The translations under genes and the position numbers were made by a program. The notes beneath the pieces are model-generated. The model was not told the origin of the DNA. It made no database searches and saw only the letters and a program-made list of their open reading frames with translations. DNA of 64,000 nt from Nocardioides mesophilus (lineage in GTDB: Bacteria; Actinomycetota; Actinomycetes; Propionibacteriales; Nocardioidaceae): contig NZ_CP060713.1 of assembly GCF_014395785.1 (NCBI RefSeq), positions 2,694,501 through 2,758,500 on the forward strand. The letters run 5' to 3'. Of this stretch, positions 16,780 through 24,882 are shown piece after piece; position 1 is the first letter of the stretch; every line of letters starts with the position of its first letter.

Positions 16780-16785
16780 GGGGTG

Positions 16786-17430
16786 ATGGTCACCGCTCCG
16801 ACGCGCAGCCCGCGCCGTGCCGCCCCGCTGAGCGCCGAGGACCGCCGCAAGGCGATCGTCGACGCCGTCGTCCCGTTGCTCATCGAGCACGGCGAGTCGG
16901 TCAGCACCCGGCAGATCGCCCGGGCGGCCGGCATCGCCGAAGGCACGATCTTCCGGGTCTTCCCCGACAAGTCCGCGCTGCTGATGGCCGCCGCCGAGGA
17001 GACCCTCAACCCCTCCGACGGCCGCGAGGGTCTCGCCGCCGCGGTGGCCGGCCTCGACGACCTGCACGAGGTGGTCCGCGTGGTCACCGAGCAGATGTTC
17101 GTCCGCTCCGAGCAGGTGATGGCCGTGCTGATGGCGCTGCGCACCATGATGGCCACGGCGGCCCGGGCCGACCACGACCACGGCCGGGCCGGATCGCACG
17201 GGCCGCCAGGCTTCGTGGTCGAGGCCCACCGTGCGCTGCTCGAGCGGCTGACCGAGGTCTTCGAGCCGTTCCGGGACCAGCTCACGGTACCCCCGGAGCG
17301 GGCCGCGCTGCTGCTCCGCACGCTGGTGCTCGGCTCCCGGCACCCCGGCATGCAGGCCGAGGACCGACTCTCCGCCGACGAGGTGGCCGAGGTGCTGCTG
17401 CACGGGATCCGCCGCGAGGGAGGTCGCTGA
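16786..17430 (+). CDS. TetR family repressor of the adjacent ABC exporter
   Basis: A 214-residue TetR regulator. The helix-turn-helix is in residues ~35-75 (STRQIARAAGIAEGTIFRVF), followed by an all-helical ligand domain (HHGRAG-type linker, then VPPERAALLLRTLVLGSRHPG). It directly precedes two ABC half-transporter genes, its stop overlapping the first one's start (TGATG at 17428-17432 region). It probably represses the operon through the palindrome at 16754-16771. ATG 16786 is preferred for the leaderless spacing; GTG 16783 is the alternative. Confidence 0.9.
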   Translation: MVTAPTRSPRRAAPLSAEDRRKAIVDAVVPLLIEHGESVSTRQIARAAGIAEGTIFRVFPDKSALLMAAAEETLNPSDGREGLAAAVAGLDDLHEVVRVVTEQMFVRSEQVMAVLMALRTMMATAARADHDHGRAGSHGPPGFVVEAHRALLERLTEVFEPFRDQLTVPPERAALLLRTLVLGSRHPGMQAEDRLSADEVAEVLLHGIRREGGR

Positions 17431-19169
17431 TGCTGTTGCGTCTGCTCCGTGAACGGCTCGCGCCGTACCGTCGCGACCTCGTGGTCATCGTGGTGCTGCA
17501 GTTCGTCGCCACGATGGCCGCGCTCTACCTGCCCAGCCTCAACGCCAACATCATCGACAACGGCGTCGCCCGCGGGGACACCGGCTACATCATCCGCACC
17601 GGCGGGGTGATGCTGACGGTGTCGCTGGTCCAGATCGTCTGCAGCGTCGGCGCGGTGTACGTCGGCGCCCGCACCGCCATGGCGTTCGCCCGCGACCTCC
17701 GCGCCGGGATCTTCCACCGGGTCGGGGCGTTCTCCTCGCGCGAGCTCGCCGCCTTCGGAGCACCCTCGCTGATCACCCGGAACACCAACGACGTGCAGCA
17801 GGTCGGCATGTTGGTGCTGATGGGCGCCACCATGATGGTGACCGCGCCGATCATGATGGTGGGCGGCGTGCTGATGGCGGTCCGTGAGGACGTCGGGCTC
17901 TCCTGGCTGGTCGCCGTCGCGGTGCCGCTGCTGTTCGCCGCCGTCGGCCTGATCGCCTCGCGGATGGTGCCCGGCTTCCGGCTGATGCAGGTCCGCATCG
18001 ACGGGGTCAACCGGATCCTGCGCGAGCAGATCACCGGCATCCGGGTGGTGCGCGCCTTCGTCCGCGAGCCGGTCGAGGAGGCCCGGTTCCAGCGCGCCAA
18101 CGAGGACCTCAGCGACGTCGCGGTCCGGGTCGGCCGCTGGATGGCCACCATGTTCCCCACGGTGATGCTGATCCTCAACGTCTCCAGCGTCGCGGTGCTC
18201 TGGTTCGGCGCGCACCGGGTGGACGCGGGGGAGATGCAGGTCGGCTCGCTGACCGCGTTCCTGGCCTACCTCGTGCAGATCCTGATGGCGGTGATGATGG
18301 CCAGCTTCATGCTGATGATGATCCCGCGGGCGGCGGTCTGCGCCGACCGGATCGTCGAGGTGCTCGACACCGACTCCTCCGTGGTGCCGCCCCTCGCGCC
18401 GGTCCGCCCCGACCCGTCGGCCGGCCGCGGGGCGCTCGCGATGCGCGGGGTCACCTTCACCTACCCGGGCGCCGAGGAGCCGGTCCTGCGCGGCATCGAC
18501 CTCGACGCCACCGCCGGGCGCACCCTGGCCGTGATCGGCTCCACCGGGGCCGGCAAGAGCACCCTGCTCAACCTCGTGCCGCGGCTCTTCGACGTCAGCT
18601 CCGGGACGGTCAGCGTCGACGGCGTCGACGTGCGCGACCTGGACCCCGACGAGCTGTGGAGCCGGATCGGGCTGGTGCCGCAGCGGGCGTTCCTGTTCTC
18701 CGGGACGGTGGCCGACAACCTCCGCTACGGCAAGTCCGACGCCACCGAGGCGGAGATGTGGGAGGCGCTCGAGATCGCCCAGGCCCGCGACTTCGTCGAG
18801 CGGATGCCGGGCGGGCTGGACGCGCCGATCAGCCAGGGCGGCGGCAACGTCTCGGGAGGCCAGCGGCAGCGGCTCGCGATCGCGCGCGCGGTGATCCGGC
18901 GCCCGGAGATCTACCTCTTCGACGACGCGTTCTCCGCCCTCGACCTGGCCACCGACGCGCGGCTGCGGGCGGCGCTGCGTCCGGTGACCAGGGCCTCGAC
19001 GGTCGTGATCGTCGCGCAGCGGGTCTCCACGATCATCTCCGCCGAGCAGATCCTGGTCCTCGAGGACGGCGCGGTGGTCGGCCGCGGCACCCATGAGGAG
19101 CTGCTGGCCACGTGCGCGACCTACCAGGAGATCGTCGCCTCGCAGCTGACCCCGGAGGAGGCGGCATGA
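17430..19169 (+). CDS. ABC exporter half-transporter, degenerate-site subunit
   Basis: A 579-residue fused permease-ATPase: six membrane helices in about residues 1-310 and the nucleotide-binding domain from ~330. Walker A is GSTGAGKST, the signature is NVSGGQRQ, and Walker B is [12 protein letters not shown]. The residue after the Walker B aspartate is Asp instead of the catalytic Glu, the hallmark of the degenerate site in heterodimeric exporters such as TM287/288 and BmrCD. It pairs with the next gene, whose start overlaps this stop (ATGA at 19166-19169). Probably exports drugs or lipids. Confidence 0.92.
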
Positions 19170-21178
19170 ACGAGAAGAAGCCGCCGGCGCGGCTCAAGGA
19201 GACCGAGCGGGTCCAGCTCGGGCACGGGCCCGGGCGCGGGCCCATGGGCGGCGGCATGGTCGGCCAGAAGTCGATGGACTTCGGACCGTCCGCCCGGCGG
19301 CTGGTGGCCCGGCTGCGTCCCGAGCGCCTCAAGGTCGCCGCCGTGCTGCTGCTCGCCGTCGGCGGGGTCGCGCTCAGCGTCGTCGGGCCCAAGATCCTCG
19401 GCCGGGCGACGGACCTGATCTTCTCCGGCGTCTTCGGCCGCCGGCTCGAGGGCACGACCCAGGCCGACGCCGTCGCCGGGCTGCGGGCCCGCGGCGAGGA
19501 CGGGCTCGCCGACATGCTCGCCGGCATGAACGTCCGCCCCGGCCAGGGCGTGGACTTCGAGGCCGTCGCCCAGGTGCTGATGCTGGCGCTCGCGGTGTAC
19601 GTCGGCGCCGCGGTGCTGATGTGGCTGCAGGGCTACATCCTCAATGACGTCGTGCAGTCCGCGGTCCGGCGGATGCGCCGCGACGTCGAGGAGAAGATCA
19701 ACCGGCTGCCGCTGAGCTACTTCGACCGGCAGCCCCGCGGGGAGCTGCTGTCGCGCGTCACCAACGACATCGACAACGTCAGCCAGACCCTGCAGCAGAC
19801 CATGAGCCAGCTGCTGGTCTCGCTGCTCACGGTGGTCGGCGTGCTGGCGATGATGTTCTCGATCTCCCCGACGCTGGCGCTGATCGCGTTGGTCACCGTC
19901 CCGGTCGGCATGTTGCTCACCGGGCAGATCATGAAGCGCTCGCAGGGGATGTTCATCGACCAGTGGCGGCGTACCGGCACCCTCAACGCCCACATCGAGG
20001 AGACGTTCACCGGGCACGCGCTGGTGAAGGTGTTCGGCCGTCAGCACGAGGTCGAGGAGGTGTTCGCCCGGGAGAACGACGAGCTGTTCCGGGCCGGCTT
20101 CGGGGCGCAGTTCGTCTCCGGGCTGATCATGCCGATCATGATGTTCCTGGGGAACCTCAACTACGTCGTGATCGCGGTGCTCGGCGGGCTCCGGGTCGCC
20201 AACGGGTCGATGAGCCTCGGCGACGTGCAGGCGTTCATCCAGTACTCCCGGCAGTTCACCCAGCCGCTCACCCAGCTCGCCTCGATGGTGAACCTGCTGC
20301 AGTCCGGGGTGGCCTCGGCCGAGCGCGTCTTCGAGCTGCTCGACGCCGAGGAGGAGCCGGTCGAGCAGGCCGAGCCGCTGGCCGTCGGCGGCCGCGGCGA
20401 GGTCGTCTTCGACCACGTCTCGTTCCGCTACGAGGCGGACCGGCCGTTGATCGAGGACCTCTCGCTGGTGGCCCGCCCCGGCCGCACCGTCGCGATCGTC
20501 GGGCCCACCGGCGCCGGCAAGACCACGCTGGTCAACCTGGTGATGCGGTTCTACGACGTGGACGCCGGCCGGATCACCCTGGACGGCGTGGACGTCGCCA
20601 CCATGCGCCGCTCGGACCTGCGCGGCCGCACCGGGATGGTGCTCCAGGACACCTGGCTGTTCGAGGGCACGATCCGCGACAACATCGCCTACGGCCGGCC
20701 GACGGCGACCGAGGAGGAGATCCACCAGGCCGCCCGGGCCACCTTCGTGGACCGCTTCGTGCACAACCTGCCCGACGGCTACGACACCGTGCTGGACGAG
20801 GAGGGCGGCTCGCTGAGCGCCGGCGAGCGGCAGCTGGTCACGATCGCGCGGGCCTTCCTGGCCGACCCGGCGCTGCTGATCCTCGACGAGGCGACCAGCT
20901 CGGTGGACACCCGCACCGAGCTGCTGGTGCAGAAGGCGATGGCCGCGCTGCGCAGCGACCGGACCAGCTTCGTGATCGCCCACCGGCTCTCGACGGTCCG
21001 CGACGCCGACCTGATCCTGATGATGGAGGACGGCCGGATCGTGGAGCAGGGCAGCCACGACGAGCTGCTCGCCGCGCACGGCGCGTACGCCGCGCTCTAC
21101 CAGGCGCAGTTCGCGGCGCCGGCCGCCGAGGAGCCGGCCGAGGCCGCGGCGGCGCCGGCGGGCCAGCCGGTCGGCTGA
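19166..21178 (+). CDS. ABC exporter half-transporter, catalytic subunit
   Basis: A 670-residue permease-ATPase, longer than its partner because of an N-terminal extension and an inserted loop between the first two membrane helices (about residues 85-135). Walker A is GPTGAGKTT, Walker B is [12 protein letters not shown] with the catalytic Glu, and the signature is LSAGERQ, which departs from LSGGQ. This is complementary to the partner: consensus Walker B here, degenerate signature here, the reverse there. ATG 19166 overlaps the upstream stop, ensuring coupled translation. The C-terminus is alanine-rich and disordered. Confidence 0.92.
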
Positions 21179-21217
21179 GCGGCCGGGAGGGTTCGAGCAG
21201 CGGCCGGCAGGGGGCCG

Positions 21218-21302
21218 GGAGACGCAGACGGCCCGTGGGCGGTACGACCTCTCAGACAGAGGCCCGCGTCTCCGGTCGGACTTCCGGAGCGCCCACGGGC
21301 CG
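21218..21302. ncRNA. candidate structured RNA or attenuator with two mutually exclusive folds
   Basis: This lies in the 322-base gap between the ABC operon and an MFS gene. CGGCCCGTGGGCG (21229-21241) pairs perfectly with CGCCCACGGGCCG (21290-21302), enclosing two hairpins: CCTCT/AGAGG (21248-21262, 5-base loop) and CTCCGG/CCGGAG (21270-21289, 8-base loop). Together they form a three-way junction. A competing helix, GGAGACGC (21218-21225) with GCGTCTCC (21266-21273), crosses the long stem and consumes one arm of the second hairpin. No T-tract follows. I do not recognise a known riboswitch class; a decorated terminator is possible. Otherwise the gap 21179-21500 shows nothing I can name. Confidence 0.5.
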
Positions 21303-21500
21303 GGTGACTGCTCGGTATTCCAGCGCGCTGACCGCCACCGTGGCGGATCGCCGGGCCGGACGGTGCGCTGCTAGGGAGCAGCCACCTCACGAGTCCGCAA
21401 AGAATTCACTTCTGGACCACCTCCTTTCCCGTGTGCTCCAACGCTACGACGACTCCGGGGCACCGACAAGGGAGTTTTCACCGTTTGGCACTCTTGCGAC

Positions 21501-22744
21501 GTGCAGGGACGGGTGCGGGGGCTGCTGACCGACGTCCGGCCGCTCCAGGCGTCGCCCGCCTACCGCCGGCTCTTCATCGGCTCCACGGTCTCGCAGCTTG
21601 GTCAGCAGATGACCAACGTGGCGGTCGCGATCCAGGTCTACACGCTCACCGGGTCCTCGTTCTACGTCGGCCTGGTCGGGGTCTTCGGGCTCGGCCCGCT
21701 GGTGGTGCTCGGCCTCTACGGCGGCGCGATCGCCGACGCCGTCGACCGGCGCCGGCTCGCCCTGGCCGCCTCCGCCGGGCTGTGGGCGGTCTCGGTGGCC
21801 TTCGCCGCCCAGGCCTTCGCCGGGAGCACCTCGGTCTGGCTGCTGCTGGTCCTGGTCGCGGTGCAGTCGGGCTTCTACGCGGTGAACAACCCGGCCCGGT
21901 CGGCGATGCTGCCGCGGCTGCTGGCCCCGAGCTGCTGCCGGCGGCGAGCGCGCTGAACATGGCGTCGTTCAACCTCGGCTTCACCGCCGGCCCGGTGCTC
22001 GGCGCCCTGCTGATCAGCTGGCACGGCTTCGAGGCGGCGTACACGCTGGACGTGCTGACCTTCACCGCCAGCTACTACGCGCTGCTGAGGCTCCCGGCGA
22101 TGCCGCCCCTGGAGCACAGCCCGCGTGCCGGCGTGCGGTCGGTGCTCGACGGGCTGGCGTTCCTGCGCCGCTCGCCGAACCTGCGGATGACGTTCGTCCT
22201 CGACCTCTGCGCGATGGTGCTCGCCCAGCCCCGCGCGCTGTTCCCGGCCCTCGCCTACAAGGTCTACGGCGCCGGGGCGGCTGCCGTCGGCATCCTCCAG
22301 GCAGCGCCCGCGATCGGCGCGCTCGCGGCCTTCCTGTTCTCCGGCTGGGTGAGCAAGGTGCGGCTGCAGGGCCTCGCGGTGGCGCTCTCGGTGCTGGCGT
22401 ACGGCGTCGCGGTGGGCGGCGCGGGGCTCTCGACCGCCCTGTGGGGAGCGGTGATCTTCCTGGCGGTCTCGGGAGCGGCCGACATGGTGAGCTCGGCCTA
22501 CCGCAACACGATCCTCCAGGTCGCGGCCCCGGACCACCTGCGCGGCCGGTTGCAGGGCGTCTTCATCGTCGTGGTCGCCGGCGGCCCGCGGGCCGGAGAC
22601 TTCGTGTCCGGCTCCGTGGCCAGCCAGGTGGGCGAGCGGACCGCGATGGTGGTCGGGGGAGCCGCCTGCGTGCTGGCGGTGCTGCTGGTGGTGGCCGTGC
22701 AGCGGCGGTTCCTGCGCTATGACGCAGAACACCCCACTCCCTGA
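21501..22744 (+). CDS. MFS transporter, interrupted by one apparent frameshift
   Basis: A major facilitator exporter of the enterobactin/MFS_3 exporter type. The first ~143 codons (TVSQLGQQMTNVAVAIQVY, then LGPLVVLGLYGGAIADAVDR, the motif-A-like loop) are in one frame and the rest (ELLPAASALNMASFNLGFTA to the end) in another. The break maps to the CCCC run at 21925-21928; a fifth C gives a 414-residue protein with about twelve membrane helices. The GTG start is a guess from the family-like N-terminus. Substrate is unknown. It is followed by a MarR-type regulated export operon. Confidence 0.83.
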
Positions 22745-22750
22745 GCAGGG

Positions 22751-22795
22751 ATGGTTGTCATGCGCAACCATTGGCGTATAGTTGTCTTTTGCAAC
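22751..22795 (+). promoter_or_regulatory. MarR-type operator pair overlapping a promoter
   Basis: Two inverted repeats of the same form occur: ATGGTTG-N7-CAACCAT (22751-22771) and GTTG-N7-CAAC (22781-22795), centres about 27 bp apart. A promoter TTGTCA (22755-22760), 16-bp spacer, TATAGT (22777-22782) is embedded, so the first site covers the -35 and spacer and the second runs from the -10 into the start region. The downstream operon ends in a MarR gene, which is the likely ligand of these sites. Confidence 0.75.
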
Positions 22796-22828
22796 CAATC
22801 CCCCAGCTCTCTCGAGGTTCCGCACCAG

Positions 22829-24427
22829 ATGTCAACGCTCACTGCTCCCGGGACGACCGACGTCCCGCAGATGTCGCACCGCCAGGTGCTCGAGGCGCTC
22901 TCCGGCCTGCTGCTCGCGATGTTCGTCGCGATGCTGTCCTCGACCGTCGTCTCCAACGCCCTGCCGATCATCGTGGCCGACCTGGAGGGCACCGAGTCCG
23001 GCTACACCTGGGTGGTCGTCGCCACCCTGCTGACGCTGACCGCCACCACCCCGATCTGGGGCAAGCTGGCCGACCTGTTCAGCAAGAAGCTGCTCGTGCA
23101 GCTGGCGCTGCTGATCTACGTGATCGGCTCGTTCATCGCCGGCTTCGCCCCGTCGATGGGCGTGCTGATCGGAGCCCGGGCCCTGCAGGGGGTGGGCGTG
23201 GGCGGCCTCACCGCGCTGGTGCAGATCGTGATCGCCTCGATGGTCTCCCCGCGGGAGCGCGGCCGCTACTTCGGCTACCTCGGTGCCGTCTTCGCGGTCG
23301 CCACCGTCAGCGGACCGCTCATCGGCGGACTGATCGTGGACACCTCCTGGCTGGGCTGGCGCTGGTGCTTCTTCGTCGGGGTGCCGGTCGCCGCCGTCGC
23401 GGTCGTGGTGCTGCAGAAGACGCTGCACCTGCCCACCGTGCGTCGTGACGTCTCCATCGACTACCTCGGCGCCACCCTGATCGCCTCGGGCGTCTCGGTG
23501 CTGCTGATCTGGGTCTCGCTCGCCGGTCACCAGTTCGAGTGGGTCTCGGCGATCACGGTGCTGATGATCCTCGGCGGGCTGCTGCTGCTGGCTCTCGCCG
23601 TTCTGGTCGAGGCCCGGGCCGCGGAGCCGGTGATCCCGCTGCACCTGTTCCGCAACCGCACGATCAGCCTCGCCTCCGCCGCCAGCCTCATGGTCGGTGT
23701 CGCGATGTTCGGGTCCACGGTCTTCCTGGCGCAGTACTTCCAGCTCTCGCGCGGCATGTCGCCCACCCGGGCCGGCCTGATGACCCTGCCGATGGTGCTC
23801 GGCCTGCTCGCGTCGAGCATCGCCACGGGTCGACTGATCGCCCGCTACGGCCGCTGGAAGGTCTACCTCGTCGCCGGCGGCACCCTGATGACCCTCGGAC
23901 TGCTGCTGCTCAGCCGCCTGGACCACCAGACCCCGCTGGTGGCCGCGGGCGCCTACATGACCGTGCTCGGCATCGGCCTGGGCGCCGTCAACCAGAACCT
24001 CGTGCTGGCGGTGCAGAACTCCGCGGCCCAGCGCGACATGGGCGTGGCCAGCTCGCTTGCGGCGTTCTTCCGGACCATGGGCGGCTCCATCGGCGTCTCC
24101 GCGCTCGGCGCGGTGCTCGGGCACCGGGTCGCCCAGCAGGTCTCGACCGGGCTGGCCGGCCTCGGCATCAGCCCGGCAAAGGGCGGTGGCAGCTCGATCC
24201 CGGACCTCGACGCCCTGCCGCCCGCGGTGCGCGAGGTGGTGGTGACCGCCTACGGCGACGCCATCGGCCACATCTTCCTGCTCGCGGTGCCGTTCTGCCT
24301 GATCGCGCTGGCCTGCATCGTGGCGATCCGGGAGACCCCGCTGCGCACCACGCTCGCCCGCGAGGACGAGCTGACGGCTCCGGCGCCCGAGGCGCCCGAG
24401 GGCGCCGAGGTGGCGGGCGTCCGGTGA
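22829..24427 (+). CDS. EmrB/QacA-type 14-helix MFS drug exporter
   Basis: A 532-residue DHA2-family proton-coupled multidrug exporter. The first helix contains LLLAMFVAMLSSTVVSNALP, and motif C-like glycine/proline signatures follow (SGPLIGGLIVDTSWLGWRWCFF). About fourteen hydrophobic segments are visible, ending with a charged tail. ATG 22829 is preferred over the upstream in-frame ATG at 22751 because that would lie inside the promoter/operator. Its stop overlaps the GTG of the MarR gene (GTGA at 24424-24427), so the exporter and its probable repressor are translated together. Confidence 0.9.
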   Translation: MSTLTAPGTTDVPQMSHRQVLEALSGLLLAMFVAMLSSTVVSNALPIIVADLEGTESGYTWVVVATLLTLTATTPIWGKLADLFSKKLLVQLALLIYVIGSFIAGFAPSMGVLIGARALQGVGVGGLTALVQIVIASMVSPRERGRYFGYLGAVFAVATVSGPLIGGLIVDTSWLGWRWCFFVGVPVAAVAVVVLQKTLHLPTVRRDVSIDYLGATLIASGVSVLLIWVSLAGHQFEWVSAITVLMILGGLLLLALAVLVEARAAEPVIPLHLFRNRTISLASAASLMVGVAMFGSTVFLAQYFQLSRGMSPTRAGLMTLPMVLGLLASSIATGRLIARYGRWKVYLVAGGTLMTLGLLLLSRLDHQTPLVAAGAYMTVLGIGLGAVNQNLVLAVQNSAAQRDMGVASSLAAFFRTMGGSIGVSALGAVLGHRVAQQVSTGLAGLGISPAKGGGSSIPDLDALPPAVREVVVTAYGDAIGHIFLLAVPFCLIALACIVAIRETPLRTTLAREDELTAPAPEAPEGAEVAGVR

Positions 24428-24882
24428 GTCGCACCAGCGTGCTCGCCGCCAAGGCCGAGGTGATCCGTTCGCTCGAGGGCGAGGTGGTGGCGCTGCTGCG
24501 CCGGGCCCGGCGCGCCACCGACGAGCGGGCCCGGGTCATCGACCCGTCGCTGACCGCCGCCGGCTTCCAGGTGCTCGCGCACCTGCGTGAGCACGGTGGC
24601 GGCTCGCAGACCCAGATCGGCGACGCCCTCGGCATGGACAAGGGGACGGTGAGCCGCCAGGTGCAGGTGCTCTGCGAGCTCGGCCTGGTCGGCCGCACCG
24701 AGGACCCCACCGACCGGCGGGCCCTGGTGGTGCGGCTCTCCGACGAGGGCGAGCAGCGGATCGCCCAGCTCGAGCGGAGCCGGCGGGCGGCGTACGTCGC
24801 GCGCTTCGACACCTGGACGACCGAGGAGCTCGGCGACCTCGTCGAGCAGCTCAGCCGCTACAACCACACCCTCGGCCGGTGA
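24424..24882 (+). CDS. MarR family regulator
   Basis: A 152-residue winged-helix regulator. The recognition region is SQTQIGDALGMDKGTVSRQ and the wing is TEDPTDRRALVVRLSDEGE, with dimerisation helices at both ends. The GTG start overlaps the stop of the upstream MFS exporter. It most likely binds the two GTTG-N7-CAAC sites in front of that exporter and releases them on binding the exported compound; this is inference from arrangement. Confidence 0.9.
   Translation: MSRTSVLAAKAEVIRSLEGEVVALLRRARRATDERARVIDPSLTAAGFQVLAHLREHGGGSQTQIGDALGMDKGTVSRQVQVLCELGLVGRTEDPTDRRALVVRLSDEGEQRIAQLERSRRAAYVARFDTWTTEELGDLVEQLSRYNHTLGR

What the first reader, a model, noticed from the sequence alone, without database searches (positions are those of the whole stretch)
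21218..21302. Pseudoknot-like or switch RNA between the ABC exporter and the MFS gene
A perfect 13-bp stem encloses two perfect hairpins, forming a three-way junction, while an 8-bp perfect competing helix crosses it and uses part of the second hairpin. Mutually exclusive perfect helices in an intergenic region are the hallmark of attenuators and riboswitches. I cannot match it to a known class, and it lies between two exporters.
Basis: partly seen in the sequence, partly recalled or inferred. Interest (0 to 1): 0.6.

Follow-up and report, generated by a model that had tools for sequence, protein, structure and literature searches.

The report
Ribosome-gripping mini-mRNA of actinobacteria
The folded spot between two exporter genes is the tail end of a small RNA on the opposite strand, found across the actinobacterial phylum, that matches the tail of the ribosome's own RNA, seems to encode a peptide of about a dozen amino acids, and folds into a pseudoknot that a translating ribosome would have to break.

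Summary
The 13-bp stem and crossing 8-bp helix exist as written, but the + strand fold is at chance level. The RNA is on the minus strand: a full-length Rfam Ms_IGR-5 hit (RF02471, 96.5 bits, 21434 to 21226), apparently freestanding with its own promoter. The 8-bp helix is not conserved; a different pseudoknot is: that hairpin's apical loop pairs with bases about 115 nt upstream, with compensatory changes.

In 279 unique RNAs across Actinomycetota I find features absent from Rfam's model and from the papers I could search: an unbroken complement (median 17 nt; 18 here) to the 16S rRNA 3' tail, far stronger than at gene starts; a 10-18-codon ORF whose stop sits at a near-fixed distance from an internal GAGGUG in 278 of 279, with a minority using another frame but nearly the same stop position; and ORF codons that form helices P1, P2 and the pseudoknot, so folding and translation should exclude each other.

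Exporter switch: not supported. Likely mechanism (inferred, about 0.4): a slow-cycling mini-mRNA that traps or gauges ribosomes.

The parts
21226..21434 (-). Ms_IGR-5 RNA (RF02471), whole model 1-184; the 3' end is not mapped
   Evidence: cmscan 96.5 bits, gathering score 45, E 2.2e-20; only match in the own genome
21464..21469 (-). -35-like TTGTCG
   Evidence: sequence; inferred promoter
21441..21446 (-). -10-like TAGCGT, 17-bp spacer, 6 nt before the first base of the RNA
   Evidence: sequence; TANNNT 5-9 nt upstream in 191 of 275 RNAs, 6 of 1360 control sites
21412..21429 (-). SD1: 18 nt complementary without a break to the 3' end of 16S rRNA (G-U allowed)
   Evidence: duplex -33.7 kcal/mol
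21371..21409 (-). ORF GTG...TAG, 12 codons plus stop, peptide MNSLRTREVAAP
   Evidence: translation itself not tested
21383..21388 (-). SD2: internal GAGGUG, 9 nt before the stop codon
   Evidence: stop at +15 from its first G
21430..21433 (-). P1, 5' strand (pairs with 21388-21391)
21388..21391 (-). P1, 3' strand
21392..21397 (-). pseudoknot, 5' strand CGGACU, inside the ORF
21277..21282 (-). pseudoknot, 3' strand AGUCCG, in the apical loop of P4
21378..21386 (-). P2, 5' strand GGUGGCUGC, overlapping SD2
21303..21311 (-). P2, 3' strand GCAGUCACC
21312..21377 (-). P3 region, variable hairpin inside P2 (also holds the last ORF codon and stop)
   Evidence: alignments A1, A3; fold
21290..21302 (-).
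21229..21241 (-). P4, 3' strand
21270..21289 (-). apical hairpin of P4 (CUCCGG/CCGGAG) with loop AAGUCCGA
   Evidence: paired in only 61% of cells in this family alignment

Best explanation
A freestanding, structured mini-mRNA of the Ms_IGR-5 family. Shown by sequence comparison: near its 5' end lies a stretch complementary to the 3' tail of 16S rRNA (SD1), then a 12-codon ORF, an internal SD-like GAGGUG (SD2) 9 nt before the stop, and helices P1, pseudoknot and P2 in which one strand of each lies in the ORF. Inferred: the free RNA folds with P1 and pseudoknot closed; a 30S subunit captures it by the unusually strong pairing with SD1; translation of the rare-codon ORF unzips pseudoknot, P1 and P2; at the stop codon SD2 sits at an initiation-like spacing from the P site and holds the ribosome or 30S. 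Each step favours slow release, so the RNA acts as a trap or gauge for ribosomes with a free anti-SD tail, its folded and ribosome-bound states excluding each other. The peptide is probably not the product that matters.
For: RF02471 match. Complement to the 16S end: median 17 nt (12-20) in 279 unique RNAs and also in the 203 not found by a pattern that fixes it; duplex -33.7 kcal/mol in the window, median -31.3, against median -11.6 at 596 called gene starts and -16.0 when each gene is given its best in-frame start in its first third; 2 of 596 then reach the weakest RNA, 0 the median RNA. Stop at GAGGUG +15 in 265, +14 in 12, +17 in 1, none in 1 of 279; ATG/GTG/TTG after SD1 in frame 220 times, other frames 64 and 10. 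Frame-switched RNAs keep nearly the same stop position. N-terminal codons end in T in 56.5% of 1093 codons against 6.2% in genes. P1, pseudoknot. Ribosome footprints on the homologues in M. abscessus and M. smegmatis are reported in PMC4974804 (section 9 read).
Against: No direct test of translation, 30S binding or effect. PMC4974804 itself warns that non-coding RNAs also give footprints. Of 275 ORFs 57 use CTG, ATC, ATT or ATA as the assigned start, 3 RNAs with a stop have none of these, and L069 lacks the stop. The frame-switched RNAs seem to lack P4 and the pseudoknot, so the pseudoknot is not essential everywhere. A local GGUCC:GGAC hairpin competes with the pseudoknot, and RNAalifold prefers it and another pairing of the 5' end. 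P2 is weak outside the family: 90 of 276 below 4 of 5 pairs. NNT codons may only keep the start region unstructured. Part of the conservation of SD1 and GAGGUG is ascertained: the parsing pattern fixes them.
Confidence: 0.4

Rival explanations
1. Translation-gated regulatory RNA: ribosome passage is only the input. When ribosomes are scarce or stalled, the pseudoknotted form persists and acts in trans through P3, P4 or a bound protein.
For: Pseudoknot and P1 have one strand in the ORF and are conserved with compensatory changes; freestanding gene.
Against: P3 is variable; frame-switched RNAs seem to lack P4 and the pseudoknot; no target search was run.
Confidence: 0.25
2. The 10-18-residue peptide is the product, and the RNA is simply its mRNA.
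For: Stop and start frames are conserved; E-V residues recur in the common type.
Against: N-terminal residues vary freely; a minority reads the conserved RNA in another frame and makes an unrelated peptide; GAG GTG is also constrained as RNA and was fixed by the parsing pattern.
Confidence: 0.1
3. A guide or shield for the 3' end of 16S rRNA: the RNA pairs with the tail during maturation or protects it from nucleases; the ORF is a release device.
For: The complement covers essentially the end of 16S, last base included in the window.
Against: Start codons at normal distance from SD1 and a conserved stop point to ordinary initiation; no maturation data.
Confidence: 0.08
4. Switch or attenuator for the flanking exporters.
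For: It lies between an ABC exporter and an MFS gene; mutually exclusive helices exist.
Against: Opposite strand; neighbours differ between lineages; the competing helix is not conserved.
Confidence: 0.03

Closest known systems
Rfam RF02471 Ms_IGR-5 (Actinobacteria sRNA)
   Same: Full-length match above the gathering score; homologues are transcribed in Streptomyces and M. smegmatis (PMC8079986, PMC8780764, PMC10454040; passages)
   Different: Rfam's consensus, as printed, shows neither P1, P2 nor the pseudoknot, and pairs SD1 bases with 55-60; no ORF or 16S complement is mentioned in the passages seen
Ms1 / 6S RNA
   Same: Widespread small RNA gene of actinobacteria that acts on a core machine (for Ms1, RNA polymerase; PMC9130861, passages)
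   Different: Only RF02471 matches here at E up to 1; gene neighbours differ from the Ms1 synteny; the complement here is to rRNA
Dual-function sRNAs such as SgrS/SgrT, RNAIII, SR1 (recalled)
   Same: A small RNA that also holds a short ORF
   Different: The ORF is 10-18 codons, overlaps the conserved helices, and its peptide is not kept when the frame changes; mRNA targets not tested
rpsO mRNA pseudoknot / ribosome entrapment by S15 (recalled)
   Same: A pseudoknot near a start codon that competes with or holds the 30S subunit
   Different: Freestanding RNA without a protein-coding gene; pseudoknot partner lies about 115 nt downstream
Translated leader attenuators such as those of whiB7 or erm genes (recalled)
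   Same: Very short ORF overlapping alternative RNA helices
   Different: No conserved downstream gene

Membership tests
RF02471 Ms_IGR-5 | Covariance-model match above the gathering score over the whole model | tested here: met
   96.5 bits against 45, model 1-184
RF02471 Ms_IGR-5 | Freestanding small transcript | tested here: inconclusive
   Intergenic with a conserved promoter-like -10 and no conserved downstream gene; expression in this organism not testable
Riboswitch / attenuator of the exporters | The named alternative helices are conserved | tested here: not met
   8 or more pairs in 4 of 13 relatives
Riboswitch / attenuator of the exporters | Lies upstream of the regulated gene on the same strand | tested here: not met
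   RNA on minus strand, both flanking genes on plus
Intrinsic terminator | G+C-rich hairpin followed by a run of U | tested here: not met
   13-bp hairpin present, but it is followed by UCUGCGUCUCCCGG on the minus strand
Dual-function sRNA | ORF is translated | tested here: inconclusive
   Comparative support only
Dual-function sRNA | Base-pairs with target mRNAs | not tested
   No target search was run
Ms1 / 6S RNA | Match to a 6S-type Rfam model | tested here: not met
   Only RF02471 at E up to 1 in 21000-21700
tmRNA | Match to a tmRNA Rfam model | tested here: not met
   Only RF02471 at E up to 1; ARAGORN was not run
Type I toxin mRNA | Short hydrophobic membrane peptide | tested here: not met
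   Peptide MNSLRTREVAAP is not hydrophobic (by eye)
Type I toxin mRNA | Antisense antitoxin RNA | not tested
   No transcript data

The most novel reading that the evidence does not exclude
A phylum-wide RNA that caps the anti-Shine-Dalgarno tail of the 30S subunit: a self-translated decoy, reset by its pseudoknot, that shifts the ribosome pool away from SD-led mRNAs and towards the leaderless mRNAs common in actinobacteria. This would be a new kind of global translation regulator.
Probability: 0.15. Interest if true: 0.9.

Novelty: new variant of a known kind. Interest (0 to 1): 0.7.

Why it matters
Ms_IGR-5 has been filed as a non-coding sRNA without a known function in the papers I could find. 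If it is a mini-mRNA complementary to the 16S tail, whose fold and translation exclude each other, a widespread actinobacterial RNA gets a direct, testable link to ribosome supply, and its Rfam structure needs correcting. Mycobacteria make many leaderless mRNAs (PMC4633059, passages), so an RNA aimed at the anti-SD tail would bear on how such cells choose between mRNA classes.

Tried and rejected
Plus-strand reading: fold at chance. Exporter attenuator: neighbours not conserved. Phage-borne RNA: the viral-contig pattern scan gave 2 matches; they score 13.5 and 19 bits with the RNA model, the one in L228 lies inside longer ORFs, and for L229 only the sequence was looked at; both judged chance. 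The one hit in the phage collection (MT835602, 'unverified', no annotation) is surrounded by ORFs that look bacterial by eye, so it is probably a mislabelled bacterial contig. An internal copy of the 16S tail as a general OFF switch: GGAYCACCTCC downstream in 6 of 276 RNAs; the longest-match lengths overlap shuffles, so lineage-specific at most. scr4389 as the Streptomyces name: not established.

Literature searches. No title or abstract start listed there describes the ORF, the 16S complement or the pseudoknot of this RNA; full texts were not read through, and most subscription papers are not held, so this is not proof of absence.

Rows dropped and limits: parsing by pattern fixed GGAGGUG-like cores at both ends (SD1 positions 6-11 of 20, largely 14, and the GAGGUG of the ORF); 76 of the 279 unique RNAs came from a scan whose pattern fixes more, and the main counts were redone without them. 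The stop was looked for at +15 first, then at 14, 16, 13, 17, 12, 18. L166, L167 and L369 are dummy stretches; L370 is a weak second match; L361 and L364 are RNAs read by eye that the pattern missed; L228 and L229 were left out. 3 of 279 lacked a 5' AC and were left out of P1, whose first pair is fixed by the parsing; 1 of 279 was too short for the pseudoknot test, 4 for the promoter count, 3. The class search did not list all its matches, so I chose fetched class loci from the listed part. A3 holds 42 family RNAs that I chose; the script was set to skip RNAs without a clear P4 and printed no such skip, but dropped identical rows. Neighbour analysis rests on rough ORF calling.

Full report
1. 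What is there. The minus strand folds better than its shuffles (z -3.00 and -3.55) and matches Rfam RF02471 Ms_IGR-5 end to end at 21434..21226 (96.5 bits, cut-off 45). It is the only match found in the 4.49-Mb genome.

2. Distribution. With RF02471, 57 of 296 phylum genomes match at E <= 0.001 and 26 of 296 pass the cut-off. With a model of the 5' 74 nt (R1, from 30 loci): 79 of 100 family genomes, 192 of 296 class genomes and 141 of 396 phylum genomes (searches over 40 genomes use stricter filters that lose weak matches). One match per genome is the rule; two are listed for G472, G357, G366, G057 and G224. In the family sample, genus g2 has it in 1 of 16 genomes. Named records in the listed part include Acidimicrobiia, Solirubrobacterales, Conexibacter, Patulibacter, Svornostia, Ca. 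Microthrix, Ilumatobacter and Tsukamurella; Nocardia farcinica has it too. No convincing phage copy was found in the scans made.

3. A freestanding gene. TANNNT lies 5-9 nt before the conserved first base in 191 of 275 RNAs, against 6 of 1360 control sites; an A-rich stretch near -42 is also common. Neighbouring genes cluster by lineage and differ between lineages, with no conserved co-directional downstream gene seen (rough gene calling, names judged by eye).

4. Complementarity to the 16S tail. The own genome's 16S ends GGCTGGATCACCTCCTTTCT. In 279 unique RNAs the stretch before the ORF pairs with it without a break over a median of 17 nt (12-20; 18 in the window). At 13 of 20 positions all 279 pair; six of these (6-11) are fixed by the parsing pattern, and 14 largely so. 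At the free positions 1-5 and 13 all pair, with A/G exchanges opposite U; at 12, 15, 16 and 0, 278, 277, 260 and 264 of 279 pair. Without the 76 RNAs from the pattern scan the picture is the same: 203 RNAs, median 17 nt. Duplex energy is -33.7 kcal/mol in the window and -31.3 in the median. At 596 called gene starts the median is -11.6 and 1 of 596 reaches the weakest RNA. Because called starts may be wrong, each gene was then given its best in-frame start in its first third: median -16.0, 2 of 596 reach the weakest RNA, 0 the median RNA. In the own genome the 15-base pattern occurs 3 times: this RNA, the antisense strand of the 16S end, and one other place; the reversed control pattern occurs twice. 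That the stretch equals the single-stranded tail beyond helix 45 is recalled.

5. A very short ORF. In the window: GTG AAT TCT TTG CGG ACT CGT GAG GTG GCT GCT CCC TAG. In 279 unique RNAs a stop stands at +15 from the first G of GAGGUG in 265, +14 in 12, +17 in 1, none in 1 (L069); TAG 222, TGA 43, TAA 13. ATG, GTG or TTG codons 5-15 nt after AGGAGG are in frame with that stop 220 times, in the other frames 64 and 10 times. Without the pattern-scan RNAs: 189, 12, 1 and 1 of 203; 179 in frame, 46 and 10 in the others. An ORF was assigned in 275 of 279 (TTG 99, ATG 85, CTG 36, GTG 34, ATC 12, ATT 7, ATA 2), 10-18 residues. N-terminal codons end in T in 56.5% of 1093 codons against 6.2% in called genes; called genes stop with TAG in 167 of 596.

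6. Two frames, one stop position. In 12 RNAs (L153, L155, L351-L357, L359, L360, L363) the stop lies at +14: GGAGGUG is read as GGA GGU, and the peptide differs altogether from the common ...EV... type. By eye L351-L360 have a terminator-like hairpin soon after the P2 3' strand and no P4 loop motif. This argues that ORF geometry rather than the peptide is under selection. At the stop the SD-like element lies at an initiation-like spacing from the P site (inference).

7. Structure. P1 pairs the 5' end with bases just before GAGGUG: 97.6% of cells paired in 276 RNAs, shuffled mean 65.7%, maximum 69.9% (the first of its four pairs is fixed by the parsing; the others pair in 268, 270 and 264 of 276 with several pair types). 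The pseudoknot pairs the ORF's GGAC region with the apical loop of P4: own complement in one of the 8 best hairpin loops in 238 of 278 RNAs, swapped mean 154, maximum 174. Variants with an exactly matching loop: GGAU 8 of 10, CGAC 7 of 8, UGAC 7 of 7, GAAC 1 of 1, AGAC 3 of 6, CGAU 0 of 1, AAGAC 0 of 3; among the 236 GGAC RNAs, 219 have GUCC in such a loop, and complements of the other cores occur in 16-53 of them by chance, so the test is permissive. On 42 family RNAs 20 of 38 pairs change on both sides (shuffled mean 11.4, 0 of 500 reach it; slides at most 11): P4 8 of 13, pseudoknot 3 of 6, P2 2 of 9, P1 1 of 4, apical stem 6 of 6 but only 61% paired in this alignment. The alignment was read with the window's structure, which favours it against slides. 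RNAalifold, which cannot show pseudoknots, prefers a local GGUCC:GGAC hairpin and another pairing of the 5' end, so a local alternative exists. P2 outside the family is weaker: own mean 3.96 of 5, swapped 3.35 (maximum 3.45), 90 of 276 below 4. Rfam's consensus shows neither P1, P2 nor the pseudoknot.

8. Literature. PMC8079986 and PMC8780764 (passages): transcript support in Streptomyces. PMC10454040 (passages): IGR-5 overlaps ncMSMEG15794c. PMC4974804 (passage; section 9 read): ribosome-protected reads in M. abscessus and M. smegmatis, with a warning about non-coding RNAs. PMC3828370 (passages, outline): the term IGR-5 does not occur in the main text held. PMC11077062 (passages): no 'IGR'. 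PMC9130861 (passages): Ms1 only. PMC8388888 (passages): names scr4389 only. PMC4633059 (passages): anti-SD and leaderless translation in mycobacteria.

9. Mechanism. Shown: anatomy, conservation, covariation. Inferred: capture of 30S by SD1, slow decoding, holding at the stop by GAGGUG, unfolding by the ribosome, and any effect on global translation. My confidence: RF02471 membership about 0.98; pseudoknot about 0.95; ORF really translated about 0.85; trap-or-gauge mechanism about 0.4.

10. Novelty. The family is known. The ORF, the 16S complement, P1, the pseudoknot and the frame-switched type were not met in the searches named in Tried and rejected. I rate it a new variant of a known kind.

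Noticed in passing
window 21501-22744 (+): The MFS-like gene seems, by eye, to be read in two frames (ORFs 21501-21956 and 21431-22744); sequencing error or a broken gene, not resolved.
   Followed up: no
window 16783-24882 (+): Cluster that by eye holds a TetR-like regulator, two ABC exporter halves, two MFS-like genes and a MarR-like regulator.
   Followed up: no
L019, L118, L137, L144, L160, L163, downstream of the ORF: These RNAs carry GGAYCACCTCC, a copy of the 16S tail core that could pair with their own SD1 (6 of 276 RNAs).
   Followed up: partly
L349 (MT835602.1 12373-18428): A record named Bacteriophage sp. holds this RNA among bacterial-looking ORFs; probably a mislabelled bacterial contig.
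   Followed up: partly
L247, L291, L305: Metagenome bins titled Acidobacteriota, Acidobacteria and Chlamydiae hold the RNA; mislabelled bins or a wider range.
   Followed up: no
L069 (1501-1729): The only one of 279 RNAs without a stop codon at the usual place; start, SD1 and P4 look normal.
   Followed up: no
L236 (Tsukamurella conjunctivitidis): SD1 and an ORF of the common type are kept, but the 5' end differs and a terminator-like hairpin follows soon, with no P4 apparent by eye.
   Followed up: no
L226 (2501-2662): A family member whose pseudoknot core reads AAGAC and whose loop lacks the partner.
   Followed up: no
L350 (NZ_LN868939.1 129490-137654): A 2.66-Mb Nocardia farcinica record filed as plasmid 2 carries the RNA; its size suggests chromosomal sequence.
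   Followed up: no
family genus g2: Only 1 of 16 genomes of this genus has the RNA while 78 of the other 84 family genomes do: a recent loss worth comparing.
   Followed up: no
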